DNA of 64,000 bases from Synechococcus sp. MEDNS5 (GTDB lineage Bacteria; Cyanobacteriota; Cyanobacteriia; PCC-6307; Cyanobiaceae), in contig NZ_CP047952.1 in NCBI RefSeq assembly GCF_014279875.1, forward strand, positions 1,550,001 through 1,614,000, read 5' to 3'. Position numbers and translations under genes: made by a program. The notes under the pieces were generated by a model. The model was given only the letters and a program-made list of their open reading frames with translations, did not search any database and had not been told where the DNA came from. Shown one piece after another: positions 7,460 through 29,352 of this stretch; within the stretch, counting starts at the first letter, position 1, and each line of letters starts with the position of its first letter.

Positions 7460-7609
7460 GTCGGGAAGCCTGATGCCGCTGATCAAAGTTGGTTGGCTGA
7501 AAGCTATACAAAACCCGCAAGGGAAAAGCAGGGGGCGTTGTGATTGTCGCTATCCATCTCCCGACAAACACACACACACCATCCCGTCAGCAATGGCGGG
7601 TTTTTTTTC
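7460..7609 (+). ncRNA. structured repeat element with terminator, copy 3
   Basis: GTCGGGAAGCCTGATGCCGC opens the element. CTCCCGAC (about 7557-7564) closes it. GGCTGAAAGCTATACAAAAC and CCCGCAAGGGAAAAGC are present inside. A CA repeat and the terminator CCCG TCAGCAATGG CGGG TTTTTTTT follow. It is longer than copy 1 because of an insertion shared with copy 6 (GCTGATnnAAGTTGG). Confidence 0.6.
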
Positions 7610-7642
7610 TTGCAAGTCCATCACCATGGCTACCTTCCAAGG

Positions 7643-8245
7643 ATGAAGCAAATAGTCCGCCTACTTCCAATACCACTGCTAATCACAGCATTCCCACCTG
7701 CTTATCCACACGGCGGCGGGTTGGACTCCAATGGCTGTCACACAAACTCCAAGACAGGAGAGCGGCACTGCCATCGGGGGAATGGATCCACCACCAAGTT
7801 GAAAAGTGGAATGGTCACTGGTCCTGTCACTCTCGTATCGGTGGGAGATGGCGATACCGTTCGGATCACTGACAAGGCAGGCAACAAGGTCACCATCCGT
7901 CTGGCATGCAGCGATGCCCCAGAAACCAGCCAAGGAAACAGCGGCAAATGGTCTACCGAGACCTTGAAGGGACTGATTCAGGGCAAGCCCATCTCTCTAA
8001 AGCCACAGGTCAAAGACCGTTATGGACGCACCGTGGCTGAGATCTATCAAGGCTCGACCAACGTCAACCTACAAATGGTCAAGCGCGGTGCTGCCTTCGC
8101 GTATCGCAGGTACCTGAAACAGTGCGATTCGGATGCATATCTCTCAGCTGAAACTACTGCTATGAACAGGAAGCTCGGGGTGTGGGGTCGATACAAGGAG
8201 GACCTAAAGCCCTGGGACTACCGCCGTTCCCGCCGAAGGAAATGA
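7643..8245 (+). CDS. secreted thermonuclease (SNase-like) with CHxN/HCH motif, copy 1
   Basis: The gene encodes 200 residues from the ATG at 7643 (AAGG just upstream), giving signal peptide MKQIVRLLPIPLLITAFPPA. A short metal-binding-like segment GCHTNSKTGERHCHRG follows, then an SNase fold. The expected nuclease residues are visible: Asp in VGDGDTVRI, Arg in TIRLAC, Asp and Glu in SDAPE, and Arg in DRYGRTVAE. The family cleaves DNA and RNA using Ca2+. Compared with copy 2, LACIDAPE has become LACSDAPE, an Ile to Ser change beside the Ca2+-binding Asp that may weaken the enzyme (inference). The stop overlaps the next start as ATGA. Confidence 0.88.
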   Translation: MKQIVRLLPIPLLITAFPPAYPHGGGLDSNGCHTNSKTGERHCHRGNGSTTKLKSGMVTGPVTLVSVGDGDTVRITDKAGNKVTIRLACSDAPETSQGNSGKWSTETLKGLIQGKPISLKPQVKDRYGRTVAEIYQGSTNVNLQMVKRGAAFAYRRYLKQCDSDAYLSAETTAMNRKLGVWGRYKEDLKPWDYRRSRRRK

Positions 8246-8466
8246 TTCGCCTCGTCGCTCCCGTCTTGATGATCGGGTCTCTTCTGGTTCCAGTCACTCC
8301 TGTCTCTGCTGCTGTTCTGGCAGAAGGAAAGGTGAGCAATGGGTACTACTGGCAAAAGACCAGCAGCAGCTCAGGTTCCATTCGTTGGTTATGCCGTTCC
8401 ACTAGCTCTTCCAAGTTCCAAAAGCACCAGAAGTGCAAGGACGCAGGGGCGGTCAAGCCCAACTGA
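8242..8466 (+). CDS. small secreted Ser/Lys-rich protein, copy 1
   Basis: The gene encodes 74 residues. The ATG at 8242 overlaps the nuclease stop (ATGA), so the two are translationally coupled. Signal peptide MIRLVAPVLMIGSLLVPVTP then VSA; mature part about 50 residues with YYWQKTSSSSGSIRWLC and KHQKCKD, two Cys, basic. The second copy at 28275 appears identical in protein sequence. Coupling to a secreted nuclease suggests an accessory or protective role, but nothing in the sequence proves it. Confidence 0.7.
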   Translation: MIRLVAPVLMIGSLLVPVTPVSAAVLAEGKVSNGYYWQKTSSSSGSIRWLCRSTSSSKFQKHQKCKDAGAVKPN

Positions 8467-8860
8467 CCCAATTGGGGGAGGCAGACGGCTGAAATCGGGC
8501 AAATAAATCCCCCTGTCTTGAAAGTATGTTCCGGGCTTGCCTGCCATCAAAGAATACCTCAGATCGACTGGTGTAACTAGTCCCCGCAAGCGATATCAGG
8601 GGATGAGGGCAGGAAGAACTACTGCTATAACTTTGCTATAACAAAGCACTAAGAGCAGGGTCCGGCCATTGAGCAGCCTAATCCAGCACTGGGTTCTCGA
8701 CTGAGTGCTTGAAAGTTGCAGCGTTATTGCAGACCCCCCTGATTCGTTCAAGCAAGGCCGCGCTCAACTCCCGCAAAAAGCGAACGCACTTAGGGCAAGG
8801 GATCAAACGGGCGCAGGCAGAAGTCCTTGGTCTTCCATGACAGGCAGTTGGAAGCGCCAC

Positions 8861-9625: not shown

Positions 9626-11302
9626 ATGCTGCAGCTCAAGGCGACAGCAGCACTACATCCCCAGGAGCTCAATGTGTTCTACCAAGCAATTGATCAATGG
9701 ACAGAAACAGCGATATGGATATTATTTAGCATAGCCGTGATAGCAGCATTAACGCTAGCAAGAAAACTAAAACCGATAATGTACGAGATAGAACGGTGCG
9801 GGCGGCTAAAGACAACTGAAATAAGAACACTTGAACTGAATACATTCCTAAGCAGAGTAGAAGAGAAATATTTAGAATTAGTTTCCAAAGTAGATAGCAT
9901 CAATGCCGACCATTTTTGCAGCTCAGAAGTCTGTTCATTGCGCATTAAAATTCTATTTATCAATGTATCTGCAGCAAAGATCCAGGACTTTGTAGCGCAA
10001 TCGCCATCACTGCTGATTTCACTTGGCCTACTTGGTACATTTGCTGGACTAACGGGTGGGCTTGGCGAAATACAAAATGTCTTGAAACCTGACATATCAG
10101 CACAAGAGGCGGCAACAGGACTCACAGAAGTCATTGCACCAATGTCTCTGGCATTCCGAACAAGCCTATTGGGCTTAATATTAAGTTTAACTCTCTCTAT
10201 TATTTATCAGCTAACTGGATGGCGCAATCTACTAGGTACTTGCCAGGGTTTGTTAACTGGTTGGCTAGAAACAATTGTCCCGATTCGAGTGGGCGAAAGA
10301 GTCATAACGCCGCTAAAGTCATCGATTGATTCATTAAATAAAACAGCAGCTGAATTACCAAATGTAATCGCAGATCAAACAAACAAAGCAATAAATAGCG
10401 CCTTTGGCGATAAACTAAAGCAATTTTTTGACTTATATGCGAATCTAGCGAGTGAAACAAAACGCATTACGTACTCGTTAACGAATTTGACAAACTCATT
10501 TCAAGAAAGCGGAAGTGACTTCTTAACAGCTTCCGAAATCCTATCAACATCAAGTTTCGCAAAAGATTTAGGAGATGCGGCTTATAGCTTAGGACAATCT
10601 AAACAAGATTTGGTGGGAGCGAGTCGAATGCTATGTGAACGTTTCGCTACATTTAGAGAAGGATTACAATCAACCCAGTTAGATATACAGTTACTGAATA
10701 ATTTGTCAGCCATAGAACTAAAGAAAGCAAATAAATTGATTGACATTACTGAAAAACAGCAAGGGGAGGTGCAGGCATTAATACAGTCCAATATAAACAG
10801 AGGAGAGGAAGTCGTTAGTGCGACCAAAGAATTGCGAAGTACCCGTCTATCCTGCGGGAAAGACTCAAAGAACTTTCAAAAAACAGCTGAGGCATTGCAG
10901 ATTCGCTTGAAATCAGACGAAGAGCTTACTAATTCATGCGAGACGTTTTTAACAAAACTAAATGAGAATCTGAATAATTGGTACGACACATCAGGAAAAG
11001 TATTTACTACATTTGAGGAAACCATCCAAAAATCAAGTGTATATCTGCGGTCACTTACTGATGAGTACAAAGAGGAGATAGGAACCCAATCGACAGCATC
11101 AAAAGAGCTACTGGTTTCGCACAAAACAGAGCTAGAAAGACTAATCGACAAAAAACAAGAACTTACAAAGCTTATTGGGGATCAATACCTAGTAATTCAG
11201 AAAATAACGCAATCGCTCGCAGAGCAACAAAAAAGTATCAATAATATCTTAGCAACGAACAAAAAGAACCATCCAAATAGCCAGGGTGATATAAATGGTT
11301 AA
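9626..11302 (+). CDS. MotA/TolQ/ExbB-like channel protein with long coiled-coil tail
   Basis: The gene encodes 558 residues. Membrane segments lie at about 27-45, 127-147 (LLISLGLLGTFAGLTGGLG) and 173-197 (LAFRTSLLGLILSLTLSII); the last two match the proton-channel helices of MotA/ExbB proteins. Residues 220-550 are a long, mostly helical coiled-coil tail, as in ZorA-type and other anti-phage or flagellar-like motor proteins. It would form the stator-like inner membrane pentamer with the OmpA-domain protein next door (family knowledge). The stop overlaps the start of that gene by 8 bases. The coding sequence is AT-rich, unlike the downstream minus-strand operon. Confidence 0.85.
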   Translation: MLQLKATAALHPQELNVFYQAIDQWTETAIWILFSIAVIAALTLARKLKPIMYEIERCGRLKTTEIRTLELNTFLSRVEEKYLELVSKVDSINADHFCSSEVCSLRIKILFINVSAAKIQDFVAQSPSLLISLGLLGTFAGLTGGLGEIQNVLKPDISAQEAATGLTEVIAPMSLAFRTSLLGLILSLTLSIIYQLTGWRNLLGTCQGLLTGWLETIVPIRVGERVITPLKSSIDSLNKTAAELPNVIADQTNKAINSAFGDKLKQFFDLYANLASETKRITYSLTNLTNSFQESGSDFLTASEILSTSSFAKDLGDAAYSLGQSKQDLVGASRMLCERFATFREGLQSTQLDIQLLNNLSAIELKKANKLIDITEKQQGEVQALIQSNINRGEEVVSATKELRSTRLSCGKDSKNFQKTAEALQIRLKSDEELTNSCETFLTKLNENLNNWYDTSGKVFTTFEETIQKSSVYLRSLTDEYKEEIGTQSTASKELLVSHKTELERLIDKKQELTKLIGDQYLVIQKITQSLAEQQKSINNILATNKKNHPNSQGDING

Positions 11303-16450: not shown

Positions 16451-19400
16451 TCAGAAGCGCTCAGCCCAAAGACGGCCGAGGGTATTGGAAAGAGCCCGCA
16501 GTCCGAGAATAAAGCCAGGTTCCGGTTCAAGATCACTAGCCTCTTGACCGACTTTCGTCAGGCAAAGTGCACGCACTTCTGTTTCGACCTCACCCCACAG
16601 GGCGTCGATATCGCACAACTGGCGGATGGGCAATAGCGATCGAATTCTCAACTCAGCAATACTGTTGTCGTAATGCTCTACGAATTGTTTGATATCGTTC
16701 AGATCTGGTAGTGCATAGCTCGTGATCTTTTCCATGGTGTGAGGCAACTCCACCCGTTCACCAGAGCTGAACACCAGATCATTGATGCACAGATTTGCAC
16801 CAGAAACCATGAAATCCAAACTTGGATCAAAATTACCTTTGAGATTCACACCGGTGCTAATCAATCCACAGCAGGTTTCATCCTTGTAGGCATCGGACAT
16901 CGTTGTGGAGCCATTGCCCTGCTCACAGCCAGCTGCTTTCACCTGCAATAATTCCATCAATTGGTCGGGATCCCCACCGCGTTGGAAACTTAAACTGGCA
17001 TCGATCCAATTGATCAAACGGCCTCCATTGCCGCCGAGGTATACCGGGGTTGGACTTGTTTTGATGAGTTTTCCTTCCTGGCGAAGCACCTGATGAACTT
17101 GCCCCAAGTAATGGTACAACCCTCCAAAACTGATCGAAATCAAACTGAGGAATTGCTGCAGTGGCTGCTGAATGGCAGAGTCTTGATTGACCAGCATATC
17201 CAGGCGACCCGCCAGCAACTCCGTTGAGCCGTAGCGCATGATGTTGTCGAGTCGGCTTGTGAAATTGCGATCTTGCCGTGCCTTTGCTTCGTCATCGCTG
17301 ATTTCAGCTGTGAGGCTTGGTGGAAACAACTCCTTCAGAAACTTTGGTTTGCGTTGCAGCAACTGTGAGCTGATATCACGACCGGCAAATGGCACGGACA
17401 CCTGATGAATCAGCTGGTTTTCCTGCCAGATGGAGATATCAGTGGTGCCACCGCCGACATCCAGGCAAGAGGTATGCACCATTTGCTTGCTCTGGAAGTT
17501 GCCGAAGTAACTTGCAAAGGCAACAGCTTCAGTTTGTAATCCGGTGTCACTCGAACCCTTGAGGGCATGCTTTAAGCCGGTTAGATCATTAAGGCTTTCG
17601 CAGAGTTCCTTCCACACCCGTCGATAGCGGGCCATTTCATTTCTTGAAAAGGCGCTGGGGAACGACACAGCCCAATCAATCTCGAGGGCACCGGATGCCG
17701 CTGCATTGGCACTGATCAACAGTGCCAGTTCTTTCAGAAACGGTTTTTGATATTGCATCTGCTCCCACTTGAAACCCGTTCGCAACTCCGCACCACCAAA
17801 TTCGCCCGGGCTTGGCACGCGCAACCTGGCTTCATGAAACAGCTCAGGAACTTGCCCGGTGACCTCCTGCCAGCCGCGAACACTGAGGGCTGTTGCCGTG
17901 GGTGGGTTGCCTCCATTTGCTTCGTTGGGAAGCATCTCCTCAGGGATGAAATATTGATTCAAAAGATTTTGTCGCGATTGCTTTTGTGAAAAGGTCAGCG
18001 ACTTCACTCGGGTGTCGAGGTGTTTGCGACTGGGGCCGGCACCATCGTCAATGTAGAAGTTTGTGAATGATGTGCCGAAGTCGATTCCAACTTTCCACTG
18101 AGCACCGTCGTTTGAACTGTGCACTGGGGGACTGACGGGCAGAAGCCCACAATCCCTGCCGCGTTCACTAAGTCGCACCAGATCGGGAAAATAATTTGTG
18201 GTGAAATATTTCACTTCCTGTTGGCCATCACGGCTGATTTTGCGGTCGTAGTCCGCAAATCCATCCACGGTGAGATTGGTAGGGCTCTCTTCGCAGAAGA
18301 TGTAGTAAAGGCTCCAATGATCATCATGCACATAGGGCCAGAGGCTGATCACCGGAAGATCATCAGCCACGATGTTCTGCTCTTTCAGCGGATAGGTCTT
18401 TGAAATGGAGTACCCATCACGCATCCCTTGCAAGGGCAGCGTTAGCCGCACTTCCAATTCACTGCTCATGCTGGTTTGCATGACGCGCAGCTCACAGCGG
18501 CCTTCCAATTCGCGACTGCTGAACAGTTCCCTCACATCAGGGCTCAGAGGCAGCAGGGGGGTGACGGGTTGGCCGTTCACAATCGGCGATCCCTCGAGGC
18601 GGTTGGCAAGCCACGATTCAGTAAAGGCTTCCTTGCCAGGCACCAGGTAGAGCTGATCCAGAAAAATCTGTTCTGGCGTAATCACCTTGATTTCGTTGCC
18701 GTATTGACGCTCCAGTTGATGCGGATCAAAGCCAATCGATTCCAGGGTGGCTGCTTTGTACAAGCAGATGTCGGCAGCGCTTAGCCCGAGCTTGCTTGGC
18801 ATCTCGGCATCCACCAACACCACCGGAGTTGATGGCGTTTTGGGCAGCGGCTTGCGACGCCGTTCTCCCAACTCCAGCGTGGCTTGGCTAGCGCTGGCTC
18901 CACCTTTGGCAGGTCGTCCCAGCAGCGATAAAGCCACGGGATTCGCTGGGAGGTTGGGAATGCGGACTGTGTCGGAAAGAGTGGGTGTCCCGAGTCGCCC
19001 TCCCGTCAACTGGCCGATGAAGCCATCGAGCACCTCGGCCATCTGCCCTGCCATGGTTTGACTGTTCAGATCTGGGGCATTGAGCATTCCTGAGCGCACG
19101 TAGCTGAACCAATCAGCCAGAGCTTGCCGTTGTGAGCCGCTGAGGGAAGACACGGGATCACTGAATCGTCCCCCCTGGGTCCATGCCATGCCCTGAATTG
19201 GCTGCGCTAAGTGCACAGCAGGGCAGAACATGGTGCTGGGGGAACTGAATCCGATGACGGAACCTTGGAGCGTAAACACATAAATCACCTTCCACGGATT
19301 GCGTCGTTCCGGGTCTTGCGACAAGGCTGTACTTCCGTCAGGAATAGCACTCGACAAACTTCGTGAGAATGGCCCGACCGCATCGTCATCTCGACTCGAA

Positions 19401-19738
19401 AAATCATCCAAAGCCACGCGTTGCGCATCCATGCGCAGGCCAAACATGTCCCAGAGGCCGAGGCAGGCCATGCCACCAAACAACTCTTCAAGTAGAGAGT
19501 CGCGCGTGGGGTAGCGATTGTTCAGAACAGCTTGTTCAAATTGCAGAGCCCTCGACCAAGGAGACGGCAGCGAATTAACCCGTGTGGTGGCCACCTCATA
19601 AACAAGGCTCTTAGCGATCACACCAAGGCTTTGCTGATCGCGTCCTTGCCACTCACCGGCCTGGGCTCCGCCGGCCAGTGGAGGGTCGGTTTTCGGGAAC
19701 CAAGGAATCTGAACGATGTCTTGTGCTGATGAGGTCAT
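16451..19738 (-). CDS. SrfB-like protein with Hsp70/actin-fold ATPase domain
   Basis: The gene encodes 1095 residues. The first 540 or so are a family-specific region without recognised motifs. From about 550 an actin/Hsp70-type nucleotide-binding fold is clear: phosphate-1 loop VGIDFGTSFTNFYIDD (550-565), AVSFPSAFSR near 690, phosphate-2 loop LDVGGGTTDISIW (759-771) and adenosine loop YLGGNGGRLINW (900-911). These are all the elements needed to bind ATP. Length and order match virulence factor SrfB-type proteins, whose molecular function is not established. It stands between the tubulin-like gene (40 bases upstream) and the shared-domain membrane protein (11 bases downstream), so an ATPase partner of a tubulin-like filament is a reasonable inference. 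Confidence 0.85.
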   Translation of the reverse strand: MTSSAQDIVQIPWFPKTDPPLAGGAQAGEWQGRDQQSLGVIAKSLVYEVATTRVNSLPSPWSRALQFEQAVLNNRYPTRDSLLEELFGGMACLGLWDMFGLRMDAQRVALDDFSSRDDDAVGPFSRSLSSAIPDGSTALSQDPERRNPWKVIYVFTLQGSVIGFSSPSTMFCPAVHLAQPIQGMAWTQGGRFSDPVSSLSGSQRQALADWFSYVRSGMLNAPDLNSQTMAGQMAEVLDGFIGQLTGGRLGTPTLSDTVRIPNLPANPVALSLLGRPAKGGASASQATLELGERRRKPLPKTPSTPVVLVDAEMPSKLGLSAADICLYKAATLESIGFDPHQLERQYGNEIKVITPEQIFLDQLYLVPGKEAFTESWLANRLEGSPIVNGQPVTPLLPLSPDVRELFSSRELEGRCELRVMQTSMSSELEVRLTLPLQGMRDGYSISKTYPLKEQNIVADDLPVISLWPYVHDDHWSLYYIFCEESPTNLTVDGFADYDRKISRDGQQEVKYFTTNYFPDLVRLSERGRDCGLLPVSPPVHSSNDGAQWKVGIDFGTSFTNFYIDDGAGPSRKHLDTRVKSLTFSQKQSRQNLLNQYFIPEEMLPNEANGGNPPTATALSVRGWQEVTGQVPELFHEARLRVPSPGEFGGAELRTGFKWEQMQYQKPFLKELALLISANAAASGALEIDWAVSFPSAFSRNEMARYRRVWKELCESLNDLTGLKHALKGSSDTGLQTEAVAFASYFGNFQSKQMVHTSCLDVGGGTTDISIWQENQLIHQVSVPFAGRDISSQLLQRKPKFLKELFPPSLTAEISDDEAKARQDRNFTSRLDNIMRYGSTELLAGRLDMLVNQDSAIQQPLQQFLSLISISFGGLYHYLGQVHQVLRQEGKLIKTSPTPVYLGGNGGRLINWIDASLSFQRGGDPDQLMELLQVKAAGCEQGNGSTTMSDAYKDETCCGLISTGVNLKGNFDPSLDFMVSGANLCINDLVFSSGERVELPHTMEKITSYALPDLNDIKQFVEHYDNSIAELRIRSLLPIRQLCDIDALWGEVETEVRALCLTKVGQEASDLEPEPGFILGLRALSNTLGRLWAERF

Positions 19739-19778
19739 GGCTGAAAAGTGCTATTGGTTGATTAATAAAAAGAGACAA

Positions 19779-21278
19779 TCAGGCCACTAACGTCCACAGG
19801 CAATCCGCCAATCCGGCCATGCCCCGATGGTTGATTCGTTCGGCACTGAGGCCATCCATCTTCACCTTGATTGCTTCCACGGTGTCGTTGTTGGCGGGGC
19901 GTCGAGGACGTGCCTTGCCCATCACCACGCGGCTGAGATTGTTCTCAAACCGATCGCTTGGCACAAGCAGCTGTGCGCTGAGTAATTCTTGTTTGAAGCC
20001 TGTGCCGAGATTGCTGCTGATTTGGTTGAGCCATTGCAGCAGCGTGTCGCAGTACTGATCGATTGCGGTTTGCACGGTGAGTTGCTCACGATCTCGGATA
20101 GCCGGACGCCCACCTCGGCTTGTGCTGGCGCCGGCCGGATGGAAGAACCGCCTCGCCCAGGGCGCCCCTGAGAGAAAGGTTTTCATCGAAACTTTTTGAG
20201 CGTCTGCAATCTCGTGGCTGACATTGTTTCGCCAAGCCACCGCGAAACGCGCACCCCTCGCCAAGGCTTCGCCAACGCGCTCATCGTCGGGTAGGTCGTC
20301 CCATCGGATGCAGGCATGATCGCTTCGGCTCAACACATTGGCGTAGCGAGTGGTGCCGGTGAGTGGATGGCGAACGCCAAGAGCAGCCAGCAATTCAACG
20401 AGATGGGCAGCGTTGGTTTGGGATGTGCCCCCGATGCTGAAGCCGTAGCGAGCTTTGATATCACTCCCCACGAGAAACACGCGGTCAAAACAGGCTTTGC
20501 CACTGGTGCGCAGGTATTGCAGTGCAGCGTCGGTGTTCAGCTGGAAATTGCGCGACTCGGCATGCACGCCCGTATCGTCATCGGCGACCCCTTCGAAATC
20601 GAAGTAAGGCAGCAACAGTGAGGCTTGAACCTGCACGCTGCTGAGGCTCTGGCTCTTCAGCCAGTTCTTTAGAAGTTGGCCGAGGGTAGGAACACCAGAG
20701 GCTCCCGTGCCACCGAAGACACTGCCGAACAGATGAATCAAGGGCGGTTCCCCGCTGCCTGCAGCCGTTTGAATATCGCTGAGCATCTGCTGCCACTGCC
20801 CCACCTGGGCCTCTTTCTGCAAATTGATGCGACTCATTACGGCGGAGCCAATCGGTGGGCGTCCGCGAAAACCAACCTCGAGATCGGCTTGCTGCTCTTC
20901 AGGAGGGAAGAGACAGTCGAACAAGGCAGCAACACCTGGTGCCTGGGTCCGCAACACCGCCTTTGGGAAAACTTGATCGAGTGAAATGGACCCGGATGAT
21001 GTGGTTAACGGACTCCACTGGCCGTAGTCCCGCAGTTCAGCCCGAGCGAAGCTGTCGCTGTTGCGGCCCACGGCAACTTTGAGAGCGCGATAACGGTTGA
21101 TCGCTGTTTGTGCCCGCGTGAGCAGTGCACTTTGTTGGTCAGGTTCTACCAAAAACACCCCCAACCGAGCAGGCGTACCGTCGTCGCCAGCCAAGAGCCC
21201 ACAGGCATGCAGATGAACCAGGGCTTCGATGCACTTTGCGCCCGTACCACCAACGCCGATCGCAAAAATCTGTTTCAT
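19779..21278 (-). CDS. tubulin/FtsZ-like GTPase family protein
   Basis: The gene encodes 499 residues from the ATG at 21278, with GGGAG nine bases upstream and only one base after the previous stop. The N-terminus MKQIFAIGVGGTGAKCIEAL has the nucleotide-binding start of the tubulin fold, and HLFGSVFGGTGASGVPTLGQ at about 183-202 is the tubulin signature loop (GGGTGTG-like). The protein is longer than FtsZ and belongs with the tubulin-like proteins found in multi-gene clusters rather than with division FtsZ. It should bind GTP and may polymerise (family knowledge); activity here is not proven. Second of the four core genes of the minus-strand operon. Confidence 0.85.
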   Translation of the reverse strand: MKQIFAIGVGGTGAKCIEALVHLHACGLLAGDDGTPARLGVFLVEPDQQSALLTRAQTAINRYRALKVAVGRNSDSFARAELRDYGQWSPLTTSSGSISLDQVFPKAVLRTQAPGVAALFDCLFPPEEQQADLEVGFRGRPPIGSAVMSRINLQKEAQVGQWQQMLSDIQTAAGSGEPPLIHLFGSVFGGTGASGVPTLGQLLKNWLKSQSLSSVQVQASLLLPYFDFEGVADDDTGVHAESRNFQLNTDAALQYLRTSGKACFDRVFLVGSDIKARYGFSIGGTSQTNAAHLVELLAALGVRHPLTGTTRYANVLSRSDHACIRWDDLPDDERVGEALARGARFAVAWRNNVSHEIADAQKVSMKTFLSGAPWARRFFHPAGASTSRGGRPAIRDREQLTVQTAIDQYCDTLLQWLNQISSNLGTGFKQELLSAQLLVPSDRFENNLSRVVMGKARPRRPANNDTVEAIKVKMDGLSAERINHRGMAGLADCLWTLVA

Positions 21279-21279
21279 C

Positions 21280-21810
21280 TCAACGACTCCCAAGAAATGT
21301 GACGGCACCAGGCACCACGAACCGATAGGTGCGTGGTGATGCCAGCAGGGTTGGAACCCAGAACAGAAGCATCACATCAAGAACCACAAATCCCATCAGA
21401 ACGATCCAGCCACCGGCTGGAACGGGATAGGAAGTCATCCCGGCAGAGGGTGAAGTACCCGTAACCGACCAGACAAAAACAGTGAACCATGCCAGGCAGA
21501 GCCATCCAAAGACGGTGAGAACCACAGCGGCGATCCACCACATCGGTTGCATCTGGCGGGTTTGTTTGGAACTCCGTGGTTTGCCAGACAGCGTTTGAGC
21601 GATCCAGATCAACATCGCTGAAAAACAGCCAGCCCACAAAACCGTAAAAGCAGGGCTGCTACCGGTTTGCAGATAGTTGTTGAGGTTCAATCCCGGCCCC
21701 ACAAGCAGTCCGGCAAACAAGTTAAGAAAGATCCAGTTTTGAATAAAGTGAACCCAGATAATGCCCAAAGCCACTGAGGCTCCAAGCAAAATCAATTGGT
21801 GACTACGCAT
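21280..21810 (-). CDS. multi-pass inner-membrane protein of the tubulin/SrfB operon
   Basis: The gene encodes 176 residues with about four hydrophobic segments: LILLGASVALGIIWVHFI, TVLWAGCFSAMLIWIA, MWWIAAVVLTVFGWLCLAWF and WIVLMGFVVLDVMLLFWV. No known family or catalytic motif. It ends one base before the tubulin-like gene and begins 21 bases after the VWA lipoprotein gene, so it is certainly in that operon. It may anchor the tubulin-like protein at the membrane (inference). Confidence 0.75.
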   Translation of the reverse strand: MRSHQLILLGASVALGIIWVHFIQNWIFLNLFAGLLVGPGLNLNNYLQTGSSPAFTVLWAGCFSAMLIWIAQTLSGKPRSSKQTRQMQPMWWIAAVVLTVFGWLCLAWFTVFVWSVTGTSPSAGMTSYPVPAGGWIVLMGFVVLDVMLLFWVPTLLASPRTYRFVVPGAVTFLGSR

Positions 21811-21831
21811 GGTGTTAATCGTTGATAAGTG

Positions 21832-23160
21832 TTAATTGGAATACATCAAGCAAAGTGAAGCTGCTGGAGTTGAGCCTGGTTCAACAAGCATTTTACTGAG
21901 ATTACTCATTAGTAGCAACAAGCCATCTGTGAGTTGCTTGGAATTGGGGTTTTCAGGATCACGTCGATCCCAGTCCACCCACCATTGTTGAGGCAAAGCA
22001 CCACGCGGAACAGTAACCCGCAATGCGTTGCCGATTGTTGGGTTTGGCAACGCGATTTGAACAACCAATTGATTGTTGATAATCGCTTCACCAGTAATCG
22101 ACTCCCCATTAAGAGGCGTAGCAGGATCGATACTTTCCAATTTGGCAAGGCCTAATTGGGTTGTGTTGATGCCAGTGACACTGATACCTTGTTTGGTTGC
22201 CATCGCAACACCTTTGGCCTTGGGGAACAGCCTCACCAGGGCAAAGTCATTCCCGGGCCTGTAGGTGACTCCATTCAGGCGAATAGGTAAGCCTGAAGCG
22301 ACACTGGCTGTCGGCATCCCCTCAACAATCTCAACCGTTTGTGTGGGTGATGTGGTGATTCGATCAAGATATGAAATTTGAATTGAATCAGCTTCTATGC
22401 CCGAGATCGAGGCATTTGATTTGATCTCATCCAATAACTTATGGACTTGCCGTTGTGGACCCGTCGCCAACAAATAAATCGGCCGCTCTGTTTTGCCCTT
22501 GAAGATCACCTCAGCATTGGAGTTGTACACACTGCCGTTGAAAGGAAGTTTGAGGGCCATAACACCGATTACGGCCCCCTGAGCCACATGCTGCTTGATT
22601 ACGGCGGTGAGCTTTGTGATATCACCATTATTGGCTTCCAGATCTGTGATGGTGAGCCTTAATGGAACTTTTTCCTGAGCACCCTTACCCTTGGTCGCTT
22701 TGGTGAGGCCAGGGCGTTGCCAAACGGTATCCAAGCTTGAAGACACGGGTGGGTAGGCACCACATCCTTGATAAAAACAAGGTTTCGTTGCTTCTTGCCA
22801 CGACGACAGAGGTTTGATAGTTCCACTACCCACACGAAAGGTTTCAACACCAAGATTGGTGGAGGCTGCGGAGAGCGTGACTGCCTTGATCAATTTCTGC
22901 CAGTTGCTGGAAGGCGCTCCTGCTGAGGTGAACCCCAACATCGAGCCACTGCCATCAATGGCGAGTTCCAGAGATGTTGCATCCGGGACGCTTTCCCAGA
23001 GCGTTTGTAGTGTGTTTGATGGTGGAGGTGTCCCGACGACACAGGCCGAGGGTGGTGGCGGGGGAGGACAGCCCGTTAACAACAAGAGTGAGCCTGCAGC
23101 ACTCACAAACGTTGCGAGATAACGCTGTAGTAGCAGACGATTATGGGATGAATAAGTCAT
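21832..23160 (-). CDS. lipoprotein with von Willebrand A domain
   Basis: The gene encodes 442 residues. The signal peptide ends in a lipobox, LLLLTGC near residue 31, followed by a PPPPPP linker. The VWA part starts SLELAIDGSGSMLGF (about 63-77), where DGSGS is the DxSxS metal-ion-dependent adhesion motif; further acidic residues in RLTITDLEANN probably complete the site. VWA domains bind protein partners through Mg2+. The protein would be anchored on the periplasmic face of a membrane. First gene of the four-gene block VWA, membrane protein, tubulin-like, SrfB-like. Its upstream region holds the tandem repeat at 23298. Confidence 0.82.
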   Translation of the reverse strand: MTYSSHNRLLLQRYLATFVSAAGSLLLLTGCPPPPPPSACVVGTPPPSNTLQTLWESVPDATSLELAIDGSGSMLGFTSAGAPSSNWQKLIKAVTLSAASTNLGVETFRVGSGTIKPLSSWQEATKPCFYQGCGAYPPVSSSLDTVWQRPGLTKATKGKGAQEKVPLRLTITDLEANNGDITKLTAVIKQHVAQGAVIGVMALKLPFNGSVYNSNAEVIFKGKTERPIYLLATGPQRQVHKLLDEIKSNASISGIEADSIQISYLDRITTSPTQTVEIVEGMPTASVASGLPIRLNGVTYRPGNDFALVRLFPKAKGVAMATKQGISVTGINTTQLGLAKLESIDPATPLNGESITGEAIINNQLVVQIALPNPTIGNALRVTVPRGALPQQWWVDWDRRDPENPNSKQLTDGLLLLMSNLSKMLVEPGSTPAASLCLMYSN

Positions 23161-23297
23161 TGACGAGCGAGTTGCACTGTTAAGAAATGTTCATTCGCTG
23201 CTAAAGGAAAAAAATGTCTCGCTTCTTGGGAGATGTACATGGATGGAACACCCAAAGACCAGGATGCTGATGTTCCCCACCATCATCACCCTGAGTG

Positions 23298-23464
23298 AGG
23301 TAGTCCGCATCCCTCGAATGGGGAATGAACCCTTCACGGGGCACTGGGCTGTATGGCTTGACGCTCTCAGAACTCGCCCTTAATCAAGGTAGACCGCATC
23401 CCCCGGATGAGGGATGCACCTTTCTCGACGTTCTGGGCTGTATGGCTTGACGTTCTCAGAACTC
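23298..23464 (-). repeat. two tandem copies of a 78-base hairpin repeat
   Basis: Units at 23298-23375 and 23387-23464 share AGGTAGnCCGCATCCC at one end and CTGGGCTGTATGGCTTGACG and TCTCAGAACTC at the other. Inside each is a palindrome: CATCCCTCGAATGGGGAATG and CATCCCCCGGATGAGGGATG. The second unit includes the stop codon of the peptidase gene (23456), so the first looks like a duplication of that gene's 3' end. The palindromes are close to the island's G-rich boxes and lie upstream of the VWA-tubulin-SrfB operon, so they could be terminator, operator or both. Confidence 0.6.
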
Positions 23465-24262
23465 ATCCTCACCGGCTCGATTCACCATCATCACGATGGT
23501 CGCAACCATGATCACGGTCATGATCCCTGCGAGACCCAGGCCAAGCACTGGTATGGGTGGCGCCGCAGCACCCGCTGGGTTTGAGCTGGGTGGAACAGAA
23601 GGCTGTGATGCCGGCGGAGTAACGCTGGGTTCAGGGGCTTGGCGAGGCGTTTCTTGCCGGTCCCCAGGCAGGCGAAAACCTTTCAGATAGCCGTCGTTGA
23701 ATGCTTGGCGCCGCTCCATTGGAGTGCCGTGATGATCATTGTGATACACCTCATAATCTCCAACGGCTTCAAAGGTGGCGCGGGCTTCGTCTAAATCTCC
23801 TGCTTCCAACAGCCCTTTGGCTTCGACATAACGAGCAAAGCCCCCAGCGAAGGCATCAGCGGCGAGTTCACCATCCTTCCCTGGTGGATGAGCGTTGTTT
23901 TCAAACAAATAGGCGTGTCCGAATTCATGAGCAATAATGGAGAGGGCTCCAAAGTCTCCAAATTTCTCAGCTACGGCATTACCGAGCGTGATTTCCAGAT
24001 AAACCGTGTGATCACCTGGGCAGTAAGCCGGAGAATCAATGCCTGACTGTGGACATGCCCGCGAGAAGGCTTGGCCTTGATATAGAAACAAGCGGGGCAA
24101 CTCCACGGTGTCTCCCCCTGGAAGGGTTCTGATGTAGTCGCCAAGAAGGTCTTCAACAGCCCCTGCGTGCTCAATGTCCCATCCCGCCTGAACAGCGACT
24201 GTGCATAAAAGGTCAATCAGGACGGCAGAAAGAGCAAGGCTTGCAGTAGCTGTGGGTAACAT
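23456..24262 (-). CDS. exported zinc metallopeptidase (YpfJ/PF04228-like) with C-terminal membrane anchor
   Basis: The gene encodes 268 residues. A signal peptide (1-26, ending AVQA) is followed by the peptidase domain: SGIDSPAYCPGDHTVYLEI (about 74-92) and IIAHEFGHAY (109-118) with the HExxH zinc site, then DGELAADAFAGGFA (130-143) supplying the third ligand. This order matches putative neutral zinc metallopeptidases. A Pro/Ser linker and one helix (VLGLGLAGIMTVIMVATIVMM) anchor the C-terminus. It lies upstream of the VWA operon, separated by the tandem repeat, and is divergent from the split membrane-protein gene at 24330. Confidence 0.82.
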   Translation of the reverse strand: MLPTATASLALSAVLIDLLCTVAVQAGWDIEHAGAVEDLLGDYIRTLPGGDTVELPRLFLYQGQAFSRACPQSGIDSPAYCPGDHTVYLEITLGNAVAEKFGDFGALSIIAHEFGHAYLFENNAHPPGKDGELAADAFAGGFARYVEAKGLLEAGDLDEARATFEAVGDYEVYHNDHHGTPMERRQAFNDGYLKGFRLPGDRQETPRQAPEPSVTPPASQPSVPPSSNPAGAAAPPIPVLGLGLAGIMTVIMVATIVMMVNRAGEDEF

Positions 24263-24329
24263 CTGATGTCGTCTGCGAGCTTGGAGATATTGGAACGGTT
24301 TAGGGTGTGTAAAGAATATTATTACTGCG

Positions 24330-24997
24330 GTGGAGCGTGGTTTTAGCGCCGGATCAGCTTTTCAGCAGGGATGGAGTGGCTTCAGCAAGAACGCCGGAAA
24401 ACTGGTTGGCTTTACGATTCTGGCCGCCATTGTATGGGGAATCATCAATGCACTTCAAGTGGCGTTGCTTCAGGAGTACATCGATAAACCTGACGTCAGC
24501 AGCGGCCCCGTCGTTCTTTTCGTAGGCCTTGTACTCCTTCAGACGTTACTTGGTCTGATCATATCGGTCGCACTTTTTGATGGAGGATTGCAGGCTGCAC
24601 GTGGTGCCACCGTCACCATTCCAGAACTTTTAAAAAACTCACTCAGATTCCAAACTTAATCGGCATTCAAGTGTTTGGCGGTTTAGCAATCATGCTTGGA
24701 TTATTAACATTTGCTGTTCCGGGCATCTACCTCGCTGTGGCATATATTTTCTCTGGCATGGCGATGGTGGACCGGCCACAGTCCTTTGTTGATGCCTTGA
24801 ATCAAAGTCGTCGATTGGTGACACCACACTGGTTTGATATCGGTTTGTTTCTGCTTGCCGTTGTTGGCATTGTGCTACTCGGCTACCTGGCCTGCTTGGT
24901 TGGTGGTTTTGTATCAGTTCCTGTTGGATTCTGCATGATCGGAGCTGCATACGATCAGTTATTGAAACTTTCAGAAGCCACCTCGAGTGAGGCGTAA
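24330..24997 (+). CDS. membrane protein read across a -1 frameshift (or a broken gene)
   Basis: Two frames, 24330-24659 (109 residues, GTG start) and a downstream frame open from about 24634 to 24997, make one protein of about 222 residues when joined. The first part has GFTILAAIVWGIINALQVAL and VVLFVGLVLLQTLLGLII; the second has GLAIMLGLLTFAVPGIYLAV and a last helix near GLFLLAVVGIVLLGYLACLV. The switch falls exactly on A AAA AAC (24632-24638), a classical -1 slippery heptamer in the right phase; slipping there reads ELLKN-LTQIPNLIGIQVFGG. A lost A in this run would give the same picture. The gene diverges from the peptidase gene, and may belong to the same system. Confidence 0.6.
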
Positions 24998-25125: not shown

Positions 25126-25278
25126 GAGCCTGATGGCTTCAAGAGCTGGCTGGCTGAAGGCGTCCATGAGCTTGGTGAGCCAGCAGTGATTGAGCTGATG
25201 CTCGACGGGCTGAATCCAATCCTCACGACAGACGAAGCCGACAGGCTGGTGGGCTGGCACCTAGGGGTGAGCCTCTAG
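25126..25278 (+). pseudogene. 5'-truncated copy of the 72-residue family
   Basis: The last 48 or so codons of the genes at 2359 and 6518 are present and intact (DGFKSWLAEGVHELGEPAVI ... VGWHLGVSL, stop at 25278). The first 24 codons are replaced by unrelated sequence and no in-frame ATG precedes it. The break marks a rearrangement point at the right edge of the central system. Confidence 0.7.
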
Positions 25279-25280
25279 CT

Positions 25281-25337
25281 CAACTGGGGGATCGCACTTA
25301 AAGAAATTTCCACAAAAATCTCCCCCAAATGGGGGAG
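25281..25337 (+). promoter_or_regulatory. pair of G-rich boxes upstream of 25394
   Basis: CAACTGGGGGATCGC (25281) and CTCCCCCAAATGGGGGAG (25320-25337), the second a long near-perfect inverted repeat, are followed by GGTGTACCCGTGCAAAAATG. This arrangement of two boxes about 40 bases apart recurs at 26309 and 28500. Confidence 0.5.
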
Positions 25338-25393
25338 GGTGTACCCGTGCAAAAATGGGAAGGTGTATTCAAGGCCCGAGACCGCGCAATCAG

Positions 25394-25675: not shown

Positions 25676-26208
25676 TTCGGATCATCCCATTGGTTTTGTC
25701 AATATGTCTTGCCTCACCATCTATTGCAGGAAGCATGGCCGAGTGTCTAGCCCTTCGAGAATTATCAGAAGATATGATCTCGAAAGCGAGGAGAGCCGAA
25801 TCTTTACTGGCTAATGAAAAATGTCCTGAAGATAAATTCAGAACAAAGCTGAACTCTGTTTCCGATTGGGCATGGGAGACAAATACGGGCGCGCGACAAC
25901 TATGCCGTGAAAGATGGAAAGAAAATACTGACTATTCATATAAGGACCTTTTTGGTAATGGGTATCGTTCAGCGCAAGGAATCAAGATTGCAAAAGATTT
26001 GGAAGTATTGGGTTTAGAGCTGTCGAGAGGAAGCTGCCCTGTTGCAGATTTGACATGGCAGCCAGAAAATGAAATTCGACCTAAAAAGACCATGTTTCGC
26101 ATGAGCTGGGAAGAGAAGTTAAACGCCAATCCTTCACTGCAGCTTTGGGCTCAGAAACACCCAAATCTTGCTGAAATTCAACGTCAGATTTGGGAGAGAA
26201 TTAAGTAG
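25672..26208 (+). CDS. secreted Cys-containing protein
   Basis: The gene encodes 178 residues from the ATG that overlaps the preceding stop. Signal peptide MIRIIPLVLSICLASPSIAG; mature part mainly helical (ALRELSEDMISKARRAESLL) with four Cys in the mature part (AECLAL, NEKCPED, RQLCRER, RGSCPV). The last codons overlap the structured RNA-like element copy 4. No family is recognised; co-transcribed with the gene at 25394. Confidence 0.68.
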   Translation: MIRIIPLVLSICLASPSIAGSMAECLALRELSEDMISKARRAESLLANEKCPEDKFRTKLNSVSDWAWETNTGARQLCRERWKENTDYSYKDLFGNGYRSAQGIKIAKDLEVLGLELSRGSCPVADLTWQPENEIRPKKTMFRMSWEEKLNANPSLQLWAQKHPNLAEIQRQIWERIK

Positions 26209-26304
26209 CAATACAAGACCCGCAAGGGGAAAGCAGGGGGCGTGGTTGTTGCCATCAATCTCCCGGCAAAACATTCAACCCCGTCAGCAATGGCGGGGTT
26301 TTTT
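26190..26304 (+). ncRNA. structured repeat element with terminator, copy 4 (shortened)
   Basis: The outer strand here is TGGGAGAGAATTAAG, which includes the end of the coding sequence and can pair with CTCCCGGCA (about 26270). The conserved core ATACAAGACCCGCAAGGGGA and AAGCAGGGGGCG, and the terminator CCCCG TCAGCAATGG CGGGG TTTTTT, are intact. The GTCGGGAAGCC start is missing. Confidence 0.5.
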
Positions 26305-26308
26305 ATTG

Positions 26309-26369
26309 CTCCCTCAGTTTGGGGAGAGAGAAGGCTGAGATCAGGCAAATAAATCCCTCATTTGGGGGA
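26309..26369 (+). promoter_or_regulatory. pair of palindromic boxes upstream of 26447
   Basis: CTCCCTCAGTTTGGGGAG (26309-26326) and TCCCTCATTTGGGGGA (26354-26369) are joined by GGCTGAGATCAGGCAAATAA. After the second box comes GGGTGTAACGATGCAAAAGT and GCGATGGTGA, the same as at 28554-28590. The terminator of the previous unit ends only a few bases earlier. Confidence 0.5.
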
Positions 26370-27529: not shown

Positions 27530-27641
27530 GCCGGGAAGCCTGCAATACAACAGCGGCGATGCCGTAAATACAGGGCACGTAGTGGCGTGATCTAGATCCC
27601 GACAAAACCTTCAGCCCCGTCAGCAATGGCGGGTTTTTTTT
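27530..27641 (+). ncRNA. structured repeat element with terminator, copy 5 (divergent)
   Basis: It starts GCCGGGAAGCC and is closed by ATCCCGAC (27595-27602), keeping the outer pairing with one change. The interior differs from the others (GCGGCGATGCCGTAAATACA, GGGCACGTAGTGGCG). The terminator CCCCG TCAGCAATGG CGGG TTTTTTTT is intact. Same frame with a different filling supports a selected outer structure. Confidence 0.5.
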
Positions 27642-27675
27642 CTTGCAAGTCCATCACCATGGCTACCTTCCAAGG

Positions 27676-28278
27676 ATGAAGCAAATAGTCCGCCTACTTC
27701 CAATACCACTGCTAATCGCAGCATTCCCACCTGCTTATCCACACGGCGGCGGGTTGGACTCCAATGGCTGTCACACAAACTCCAAGACAGGAGAGCGGCA
27801 CTGCCATCGGGGGAATGGATCCACCACCAAGTTGAAAAGTGGAATGGTCACTGGTCCTGTCACTCTCGTATCGGTGGGAGATGGCGATACCGTTCGGATC
27901 ACTGACAAGGCAGGCAACAAGGTCACCATCCGTCTGGCATGCATCGATGCCCCAGAAACCAGCCAAGGAAACAGCGGCAAATGGTCGACCGAGACCTTGA
28001 AGGGACTGATTCAGGGCAAGCCCATCTCTCTAAAGCCACAGATCAAAGACCGTTATGGACGCACCGTGGCTGAGATCTATCAAGGCTCGACCAACGTCAA
28101 CCTACAAATGGTCAAGCGCGGTGCTGCCTTCGCGTATCGCAGGTACCTGAAACAGTGCGATTCGGATGCATATCTCTCAGCTGAAACTACTGCTATGAAC
28201 AGGAAGCTCGGGGTGTGGGGTCCATACAAGGTGGACCTAAAGCCCTGGGACTACCGCCGTTCCCGCCGAAGGAAATGA
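27676..28278 (+). CDS. secreted thermonuclease (SNase-like) with CHxN/HCH motif, copy 2
   Basis: The gene encodes 200 residues, almost identical to the protein at 7643. Visible differences are LACIDAPE (Ser in copy 1), PQIKDRYG (Val in copy 1), WGPYK (Arg) and KVDLK (Glu). This copy has the family consensus RLxxIDAPE around the Ca2+-binding Asp, so it is probably the fully active form. Signal peptide, GCHTNSKTGERHCH segment and the nuclease residues are as in copy 1. The stop overlaps the next gene (ATGA). Confidence 0.88.
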   Translation: MKQIVRLLPIPLLIAAFPPAYPHGGGLDSNGCHTNSKTGERHCHRGNGSTTKLKSGMVTGPVTLVSVGDGDTVRITDKAGNKVTIRLACIDAPETSQGNSGKWSTETLKGLIQGKPISLKPQIKDRYGRTVAEIYQGSTNVNLQMVKRGAAFAYRRYLKQCDSDAYLSAETTAMNRKLGVWGPYKVDLKPWDYRRSRRRK

Positions 28279-28499
28279 TTCGCCTCGTCGCTCCCGTCTT
28301 GATGATCGGGTCTCTTCTGGTTCCAGTCACTCCTGTCTCTGCTGCTGTTCTGGCAGAAGGAAAGGTGAGCAATGGGTACTACTGGCAAAAGACCAGCAGC
28401 AGCTCAGGTTCCATTCGTTGGTTATGCCGTTCCACTAGCTCTTCCAAGTTCCAAAAGCACCAGAAGTGCAAGGACGCAGGGGCGGTCAAGCCCAACTGA
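28275..28499 (+). CDS. small secreted Ser/Lys-rich protein, copy 2
   Basis: The gene encodes 74 residues that appear identical to the protein at 8242; translation is coupled to the nuclease by ATGA. Signal peptide MIRLVAPVLMIGSLLVPVTP; mature part with two Cys and a Ser-rich stretch. Preservation of both genes in both copies suggests they work as a pair. Confidence 0.7.
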   Translation: MIRLVAPVLMIGSLLVPVTPVSAAVLAEGKVSNGYYWQKTSSSSGSIRWLCRSTSSSKFQKHQKCKDAGAVKPN

Positions 28500-28557
28500 C
28501 CCAATTGGGGGAGAGAAACGGATGAAATCGGGAAAATAAACCCCCCAGTTGGGGGAG
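28500..28557 (+). promoter_or_regulatory. pair of palindromic boxes upstream of 28625
   Basis: CCCAATTGGGGG (28500-28511) and CCCCCCAGTTGGGGGAG (28541-28557), joined by ATGAAATCGGGAAAATAAA. Downstream is GGGTGTAACGATGCAAAAGT, identical to the region after 26369. Confidence 0.5.
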
Positions 28558-28624
28558 GGTGTAACGATGCAAAAGTGCGATGGTGAATACATCGGAGGGA
28601 CGACCTTCACAACACCTAACTCAA

Positions 28625-28888
28625 ATGAAACTTTTCTCTTCCATCGCTGCTGTTTCAATCGCTGCCTCAGCACTCTTTGGTCTATCAACATTGGAAGCCA
28701 AGGCTGATTATGCCTATTGCAATTCTTATGGCGGCATGACCAACTGTTATGGATCCGACGGAAGTTCTTATAGCAGCTACGGGATTGGAGACAACTACGA
28801 GTCCTATTCGGGAACTGACTCAAACGGCGACTATTACTCAGGAAGCTGCACTCGTATTGGTACATATGTGAGCTGCAATACATATTGA
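28625..28888 (+). CDS. small secreted Tyr/Ser/Gly-rich protein
   Basis: The gene encodes 87 residues. Signal peptide MKLFSSIAAVSIAASALFGL then STLEAKA; mature part rich in Tyr, Ser, Gly and Asp (NSYGGMTNCYGSDGSSYSSY) with four Cys, likely disordered or adhesive. The ATG follows the leader ACAACACCTAACTCAA shared with the gene at 7170. No family is recognised. Confidence 0.7.
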   Translation: MKLFSSIAAVSIAASALFGLSTLEAKADYAYCNSYGGMTNCYGSDGSSYSSYGIGDNYESYSGTDSNGDYYSGSCTRIGTYVSCNTY

Positions 28889-29185: not shown

Positions 29186-29191
29186 TCCCTT

Positions 29192-29332
29192 GTCGGGAAG
29201 CCTGATGTCGCTGATGGAAGTTGGTCGGCTGAAAGCTATACAAGACCCGCAAGGGAAAAGCAGGGGGCGTGTGTGTCGCTATCGATCTCCCGACTAAAAA
29301 TTCAACCCCCGTCAGCAATGGCGGGGGTTTTT
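29192..29332 (+). ncRNA. structured repeat element with terminator, copy 6
   Basis: GTCGGGAAGCCTGATGTCGC opens and CTCCCGAC (about 29288-29295) closes the domain. The core GGCTGAAAGCTATACAAGAC, CCGCAAGGGAAAAGC and AGGGGGCG is present. The terminator is CCCCCG TCAGCAATGG CGGGGG TTTTT; its stem is one pair longer on both sides than in the other copies, a compensated change that supports real pairing. Confidence 0.6.
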
Positions 29333-29352
29333 ATTGGCAATAAACTGATGGT

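What the first reader, a model, noticed from the sequence alone, without database searches (positions are those of the whole stretch)
24630..24660. Canonical -1 slippery heptamer joins two halves of a membrane protein
At 24632-24638 the sequence A AAA AAC stands in the exact phase needed for -1 frameshifting. The 0 frame stops 19 bases later, giving a 109-residue form; after a -1 slip the frame runs on for another 110 or so residues with good membrane helices. The same heptamer is used by known frameshifting genes. A simple loss of one A would look alike.
Basis: partly seen in the sequence, partly recalled or inferred. Interest (0 to 1): 0.58.

Follow-up and report, generated by a model that had tools for sequence, protein, structure and literature searches.

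The report
Frameshifted membrane-protein gene at an A-run
A membrane-protein gene in this marine cyanobacterium is broken by a one-base shift in a run of A's; relatives carry the same gene unbroken and without the slippery motif, so this is most likely an ordinary recent mutation and not a built-in frameshift signal.

Summary
A AAA AAC lies at 24632-24638 in canonical phase; the 0 frame (24330-24659) gives 109 aa and the -1 frame runs on to 24997. Both halves belong to one membrane protein. But four distinct close orthologues (59-64% identity: Synechococcus UW140 and Cruz-7E5, Cyanobacteria bin.51, a Cyanobium MAG) and 13 more distant homologues (38-45%) read straight through the junction and carry no heptamer. 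No Shine-Dalgarno-like motif lies upstream, and downstream folding is average (z = -0.44). The phase is not independent evidence: a one-base contraction of an A-run in that register leaves exactly this heptamer. The half after the shift is not relaxed and has no further stops, so the shift is recent, or a sequencing error, or leaks enough product to matter; without reads or sister strains I cannot separate these. Best reading: a nascent pseudogene of an accessory YciC-like membrane protein, with at most a trace of full-length product from unstimulated slippage. Low interest.

The parts
24330..24659 (+). 0-frame ORF, GTG start, 109 aa: N-terminal half of a YciC-like membrane protein plus a short out-of-frame tail (SLRFQT)
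   Evidence: N-half 49-51% identical to the four close orthologues
24632..24638 (+). A AAA AAC heptamer in canonical -1 phase; the junction of the two frames; part of a six-A run
   Evidence: orthologues read CTG TTT GCC AAG GTG, CTA TTC ACC AAG GTG or TTG TTC GCC AAG GTA here
24638..24997 (+). -1 frame continuation, 119 residues: C-terminal half of the same membrane protein
   Evidence: 67-75% identical to the four close orthologues
24321..24323 (+). ATT codon that aligns with the ATG start of the Cruz-7E5 and bin.51 orthologues; the first usable start in the window is GTG 24330, without an obvious Shine-Dalgarno motif in the 30 nt before it. Possible second lesion
24650..24678 (+). Weak 6-bp inverted repeat CCAAAC/GTTTGG, 17 nt between arms, 11 nt after the heptamer; not convincing as a stimulator
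23456..24262 (-). Divergent neighbour: neutral zinc metallopeptidase (Pfam Zn_peptidase), intact here; the same divergent pair occurs in Cruz-7E5

Best explanation
The gene is an accessory YciC/UPF0259-like multi-pass membrane protein that has recently lost one base inside a run of A's, probably by slippage during DNA replication. Most ribosomes stop after 109 residues, leaving a truncated membrane protein. Because of the register of the run, the shortened run automatically reads as A AAA AAC in canonical phase, so a trace of full-length product may still be made by spontaneous, unstimulated slippage. Shown: the two halves, the location of the shift, uninterrupted relatives without the heptamer. 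Inferred: that the loss is real in the cell, recent, and largely inactivating.
For: Uninterrupted frame and no heptamer in 4 of 4 distinct close orthologues and 13 of 13 more distant homologues aligned at the site (loci). Between conserved flanking codons the window has 8 bases (TTA AAA AA) where the close orthologues have 9, that is, three codons ending in a conserved AAG Lys. No Shine-Dalgarno-like motif 5' and average folding 3'. The register argument: a six-A run followed by C is a canonical heptamer only when it starts at codon position 3, and this follows from where the run lies. The gene is dispensable in the genus: only the window genome and UW140 of 31 carry it at high similarity. A more distant paralogue (31% over the matched part, open frame 277 aa) is intact elsewhere in the same genome. 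The start codon position of the Cruz-7E5 and bin.51 orthologues is ATT here.
Against: The half after the shift shows no relaxation: identity to orthologues is 67-75% against 49-51% for the first half, dN 0.19-0.24 against 0.43-0.46, no other stop in 119 codons. That fits a recent shift, but also continued translation or an error in the sequence. A AAA AAC is among the heptamers measured above 0.10% in E. coli without a stimulator (PMC4066793, section 20 read).
Confidence: 0.68

Rival explanations
1. Lineage-specific programmed or corrective -1 ribosomal frameshifting: tRNA-Lys and tRNA-Asn slip on A AAA AAC and a useful amount of 222-aa protein is made, rescuing the indel.
For: Canonical heptamer in the right phase exactly at the junction; downstream half not relaxed; A AAA AAC shifts above 0.10% without stimulator in E. 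coli, and one IS cluster with this heptamer is a proven case without an established stimulator (PMC4066793); corrective frameshifting is a described class (PMC5009743 passages).
Against: The heptamer is absent from all 17 homologues aligned at the site; no stimulator; [quoted passage not shown] coli (PMC5009743 passage); a ribosomal slip would insert Asn where the close orthologues have a conserved Lys.
Confidence: 0.13
2. Sequencing or assembly error: the cell's gene is intact and the record has one base too few in the A-run.
For: The rest of the gene is clean and conserved in the second half; the lesion sits in a homopolymer.
Against: The genome is a single contig, 99.98% complete; six bases is a short run for modern reads (general knowledge); the four neighbouring conserved genes at 19779-24262 are full-length in single frames against their homologues.
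Confidence: 0.13
3. Split gene: the second half is made separately by reinitiation at GTG 24671 or ATG further on, and the two halves assemble.
For: The stop (24657-24659) is 11 nt before GTG 24671 in the -1 frame.
Against: No obvious Shine-Dalgarno motif in the 30 nt before GTG 24671 (sequence printed); the homologues aligned at the site are single-chain.
Confidence: 0.04
4. Transcriptional slippage on the A-run, or phase variation by run-length change in the population.
For: The shift lies in a homopolymer.
Against: Six A's is short: the survey of transcriptional slippage in bacteria that I looked at worked with runs of nine A or T when it sought used cases (PMC1088944 passages); the relatives have no run here.
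Confidence: 0.02

Closest known systems
Frameshift pseudogenes arising by indels in homopolymer runs
   Same: Single one-base shift in an A-run; intact orthologues; rest of the gene still clean
   Different: No reads or sister strains available to show that the lesion is real or fixed
Programmed -1 frameshifting at X XXY YYZ heptamers (dnaX, IS elements)
   Same: Canonical A AAA AAC in phase, overlapping -1 frame that extends the product
   Different: Heptamer not conserved in any homologue; no downstream structure or upstream Shine-Dalgarno found
phr4/phr5 of Cyanobium and marine Synechococcus (PMC9426592; passages seen)
   Same: A picocyanobacterial gene split by a frame change at a homopolymer, with ribosomal frameshifting discussed
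   Different: There the seven-G-C junction is stated to be present in all strains that have the pair; here the junction is unique to one genome
YciC family / UPF0259 membrane proteins (Pfam PF06790, NCBIfam NF002774)
   Same: Weak profile matches of the Cruz-7E5 orthologue (E 3.3e-5 and 3.5e-5) and weaker ones of UW140 and of the C-half
   Different: All scores are below the curated cut-offs, so only a likely distant relation

Membership tests
Programmed -1 ribosomal frameshifting | X XXY YYZ heptamer in the 0-frame phase, before the 0-frame stop, within the overlap | tested here: met
Programmed -1 ribosomal frameshifting | Heptamer and frame change conserved among orthologues | tested here: not met
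   0 of 4 close and 0 of 13 more distant homologues
Programmed -1 ribosomal frameshifting | Downstream stimulatory structure | tested here: not met
   z = -0.44 for 100 nt; best 40-nt fold -8.0 kcal/mol, equalled or exceeded at 68.5% of 400 random window positions; only a 6-bp inverted repeat. Pseudoknots were not tested
Programmed -1 ribosomal frameshifting | Upstream Shine-Dalgarno-like stimulator | tested here: not met
   none of eight SD-like strings in the 25 nt upstream
Programmed -1 ribosomal frameshifting | Fused product observed | not testable with these tools
   needs mass spectrometry, ribosome profiling or a reporter
Frameshift pseudogene | Intact orthologues, lesion specific to this lineage | tested here: met
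Frameshift pseudogene | Relaxed selection or further lesions after the shift | tested here: inconclusive
   no relaxation of the C-half, no further stops; possible loss of the orthologues' start codon
YciC / UPF0259 | Score above the curated cut-off | tested here: not met
   Cruz-7E5 orthologue 24.2 bits against 31.4 (Pfam) and 23.6 against 227 (NCBIfam)

The most novel reading that the evidence does not exclude
A one-base loss created its own rescue signal. The shortened A-run is a slippery heptamer, so the gene drops from full to low-level expression of the complete membrane protein by unstimulated -1 slippage, and this reduced level has been kept by selection, which would explain the unrelaxed second half.
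Probability: 0.1. Interest if true: 0.45.

Novelty: new member of a known kind. Interest (0 to 1): 0.12.

Why it matters
It shows that a textbook heptamer at the junction of two halves is weak evidence for programmed frameshifting on its own. A one-base contraction of an A-run in the right register must leave such a heptamer, so conservation in orthologues is the test that counts. If corrective slippage were shown here, it would be a clean case of an indel that carries its own partial remedy in a free-living bacterium.

Tried and rejected
Mobile-element or phage origin: no relative in the viral contig scan or in phages; one 26% partial match among plasmids.

Downstream stimulator: folding and inverted repeats gave nothing beyond chance.

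Ancient shift with heptamer lost elsewhere: rejected, because close and more distant homologues all share the uninterrupted form and the gene keeps its place beside the zinc peptidase in Cruz-7E5.

dN/dS by half: dS is saturated or undefined, so only dN, identity and branch lengths were used.

More orthologues: three further genus searches (9, 4 and 16 genomes) added no new one. The family search drew 400 genomes from a larger group.

Mistakes: the orthologue part read the wrong strand of L002 and is discarded, including its heptamer scan; one search replaces it. In one search, matches spanning fewer than 100 query residues (except L041) and very distant homologues (22-30%) were not counted at the site.

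Full report
What is there. The window lies in a 2.44-Mb single-contig genome; the relatives found are picocyanobacteria (Synechococcus, Cyanobium). A AAA AAC stands at 24632-24638 with its first A at codon position 3 of the frame that opens at GTG 24330 and ends at TAA 24657-24659, 109 aa. The -1 frame from 24638 runs 119 residues to 24997. The two frames overlap over 76 nt, 24581-24656.

Two halves of one protein. Thirteen further homologues at 38-45% (L030-L042; L041 is cut by a contig end) also read straight through. At the junction the close orthologues read CTG/CTA/TTG TTC-or-TTT GCC/ACC AAG GTG/GTA, with no A-run and no heptamer; 0 of 17 homologues have it. Upstream of the run the 0 frame aligns, and downstream the -1 frame aligns, so the shift is placed within the run. 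The window is one base short there relative to the relatives.

Context. In Cruz-7E5 the orthologue lies divergently beside the same cluster as in the window: a zinc peptidase, a 442-aa protein without a Pfam match, a 176-aa protein and a tubulin-like protein (window 19779-24262). So the window gene is the orthologue in its old place and not a fragment acquired separately. Two genus relatives (G005, G019) have the cluster with the zinc peptidase, but no match to this gene in the stretches fetched around it. Of 31 genomes in the genus only the window genome and UW140 carry the gene at E <= 1e-12, so it is accessory. A more distant paralogue (open frame 277 aa) is intact elsewhere in the window's genome.

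Is it programmed? Nothing beyond the heptamer says so. The 100 nt downstream fold at z = -0.44 (59 of 200 shuffles as good). The best local 40-nt fold is matched or bettered at 68.5% of 400 random window positions. There is a 6-bp inverted repeat with a 17-nt gap. No Shine-Dalgarno-like string lies in the 25 nt before the heptamer. Pseudoknots were not tested. In E. [quoted passage not shown]

Why the phase is not independent evidence. A run of six A's followed by C is a canonical heptamer if and only if the run starts at codon position 3. A one-base contraction in that register therefore leaves the heptamer by necessity. By random placement, AAAAAAC in the right phase would fall in a 76-nt stretch about 0.2% of the time, and a homopolymer of six or more about 4.6%. 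Homopolymers are indel hotspots (general knowledge), so the placement does not favour programming over mutation by anything like that factor.

Selection. The half after the shift is well kept: identity to the close orthologues is 67-75% (first half 49-51%), dN 0.19-0.24 (first half 0.43-0.46), and the window's branch is 0.25 in the second half against 0.58 in the first. For comparison, UW140 against the other three has 76-78% in the second half and 59-61% in the first. There is no further stop in 119 codons. This rules out an old pseudogene. It does not separate a recent lesion, a sequencing error and continued translation. One hint of further decay: the position of the ATG of the Cruz-7E5 and bin.51 orthologues is ATT here.

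Verdict. Most likely a recently frameshifted accessory gene for a YciC-like membrane protein (family assignment weak: below cut-offs). Sequencing error and corrective slippage remain open at about 13% each. A search for papers holding both 'marine Synechococcus' and 'ribosomal frameshifting' gave 5 papers; the one I looked into (PMC9426592, passages) discusses a different split gene, phr4/phr5, whose junction is stated to be present in all strains with the pair, which is the pattern that is missing here.

Noticed in passing
window 25126-25354, 26207-26369, 28499-28654, 29190-29336: Dispersed repeats of roughly 100-230 bp with many copies (mostly 72-93% identity) in this genome and in most genomes of the genus, lying among short genes.
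   Followed up: no
window 7583-8516 and 27616-28549: A 934-bp stretch present twice in the window at 99% identity; the second copy covers a staphylococcal-nuclease-like gene, 27643-28278.
   Followed up: no
L070 9440-11060 (Cruz-7E5): The zinc-peptidase gene next to the orthologue appears interrupted in Cruz-7E5 by a transposase-like insertion that is itself in two ORFs (9665-10339 and 10522-10863); the transposase reading is by eye, not by a family search.
   Followed up: partly
window 16451-24262, minus strand: Gene cluster with a 1096-aa ORF, a tubulin-like protein (Pfam Tubulin_2), two proteins without a Pfam match and a zinc metallopeptidase; seen (the 1096-aa ORF region in part) in G005, G019 and Cruz-7E5, and with long DNA matches in only G005 and G019 of the 30 other genus genomes searched.
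   Followed up: partly
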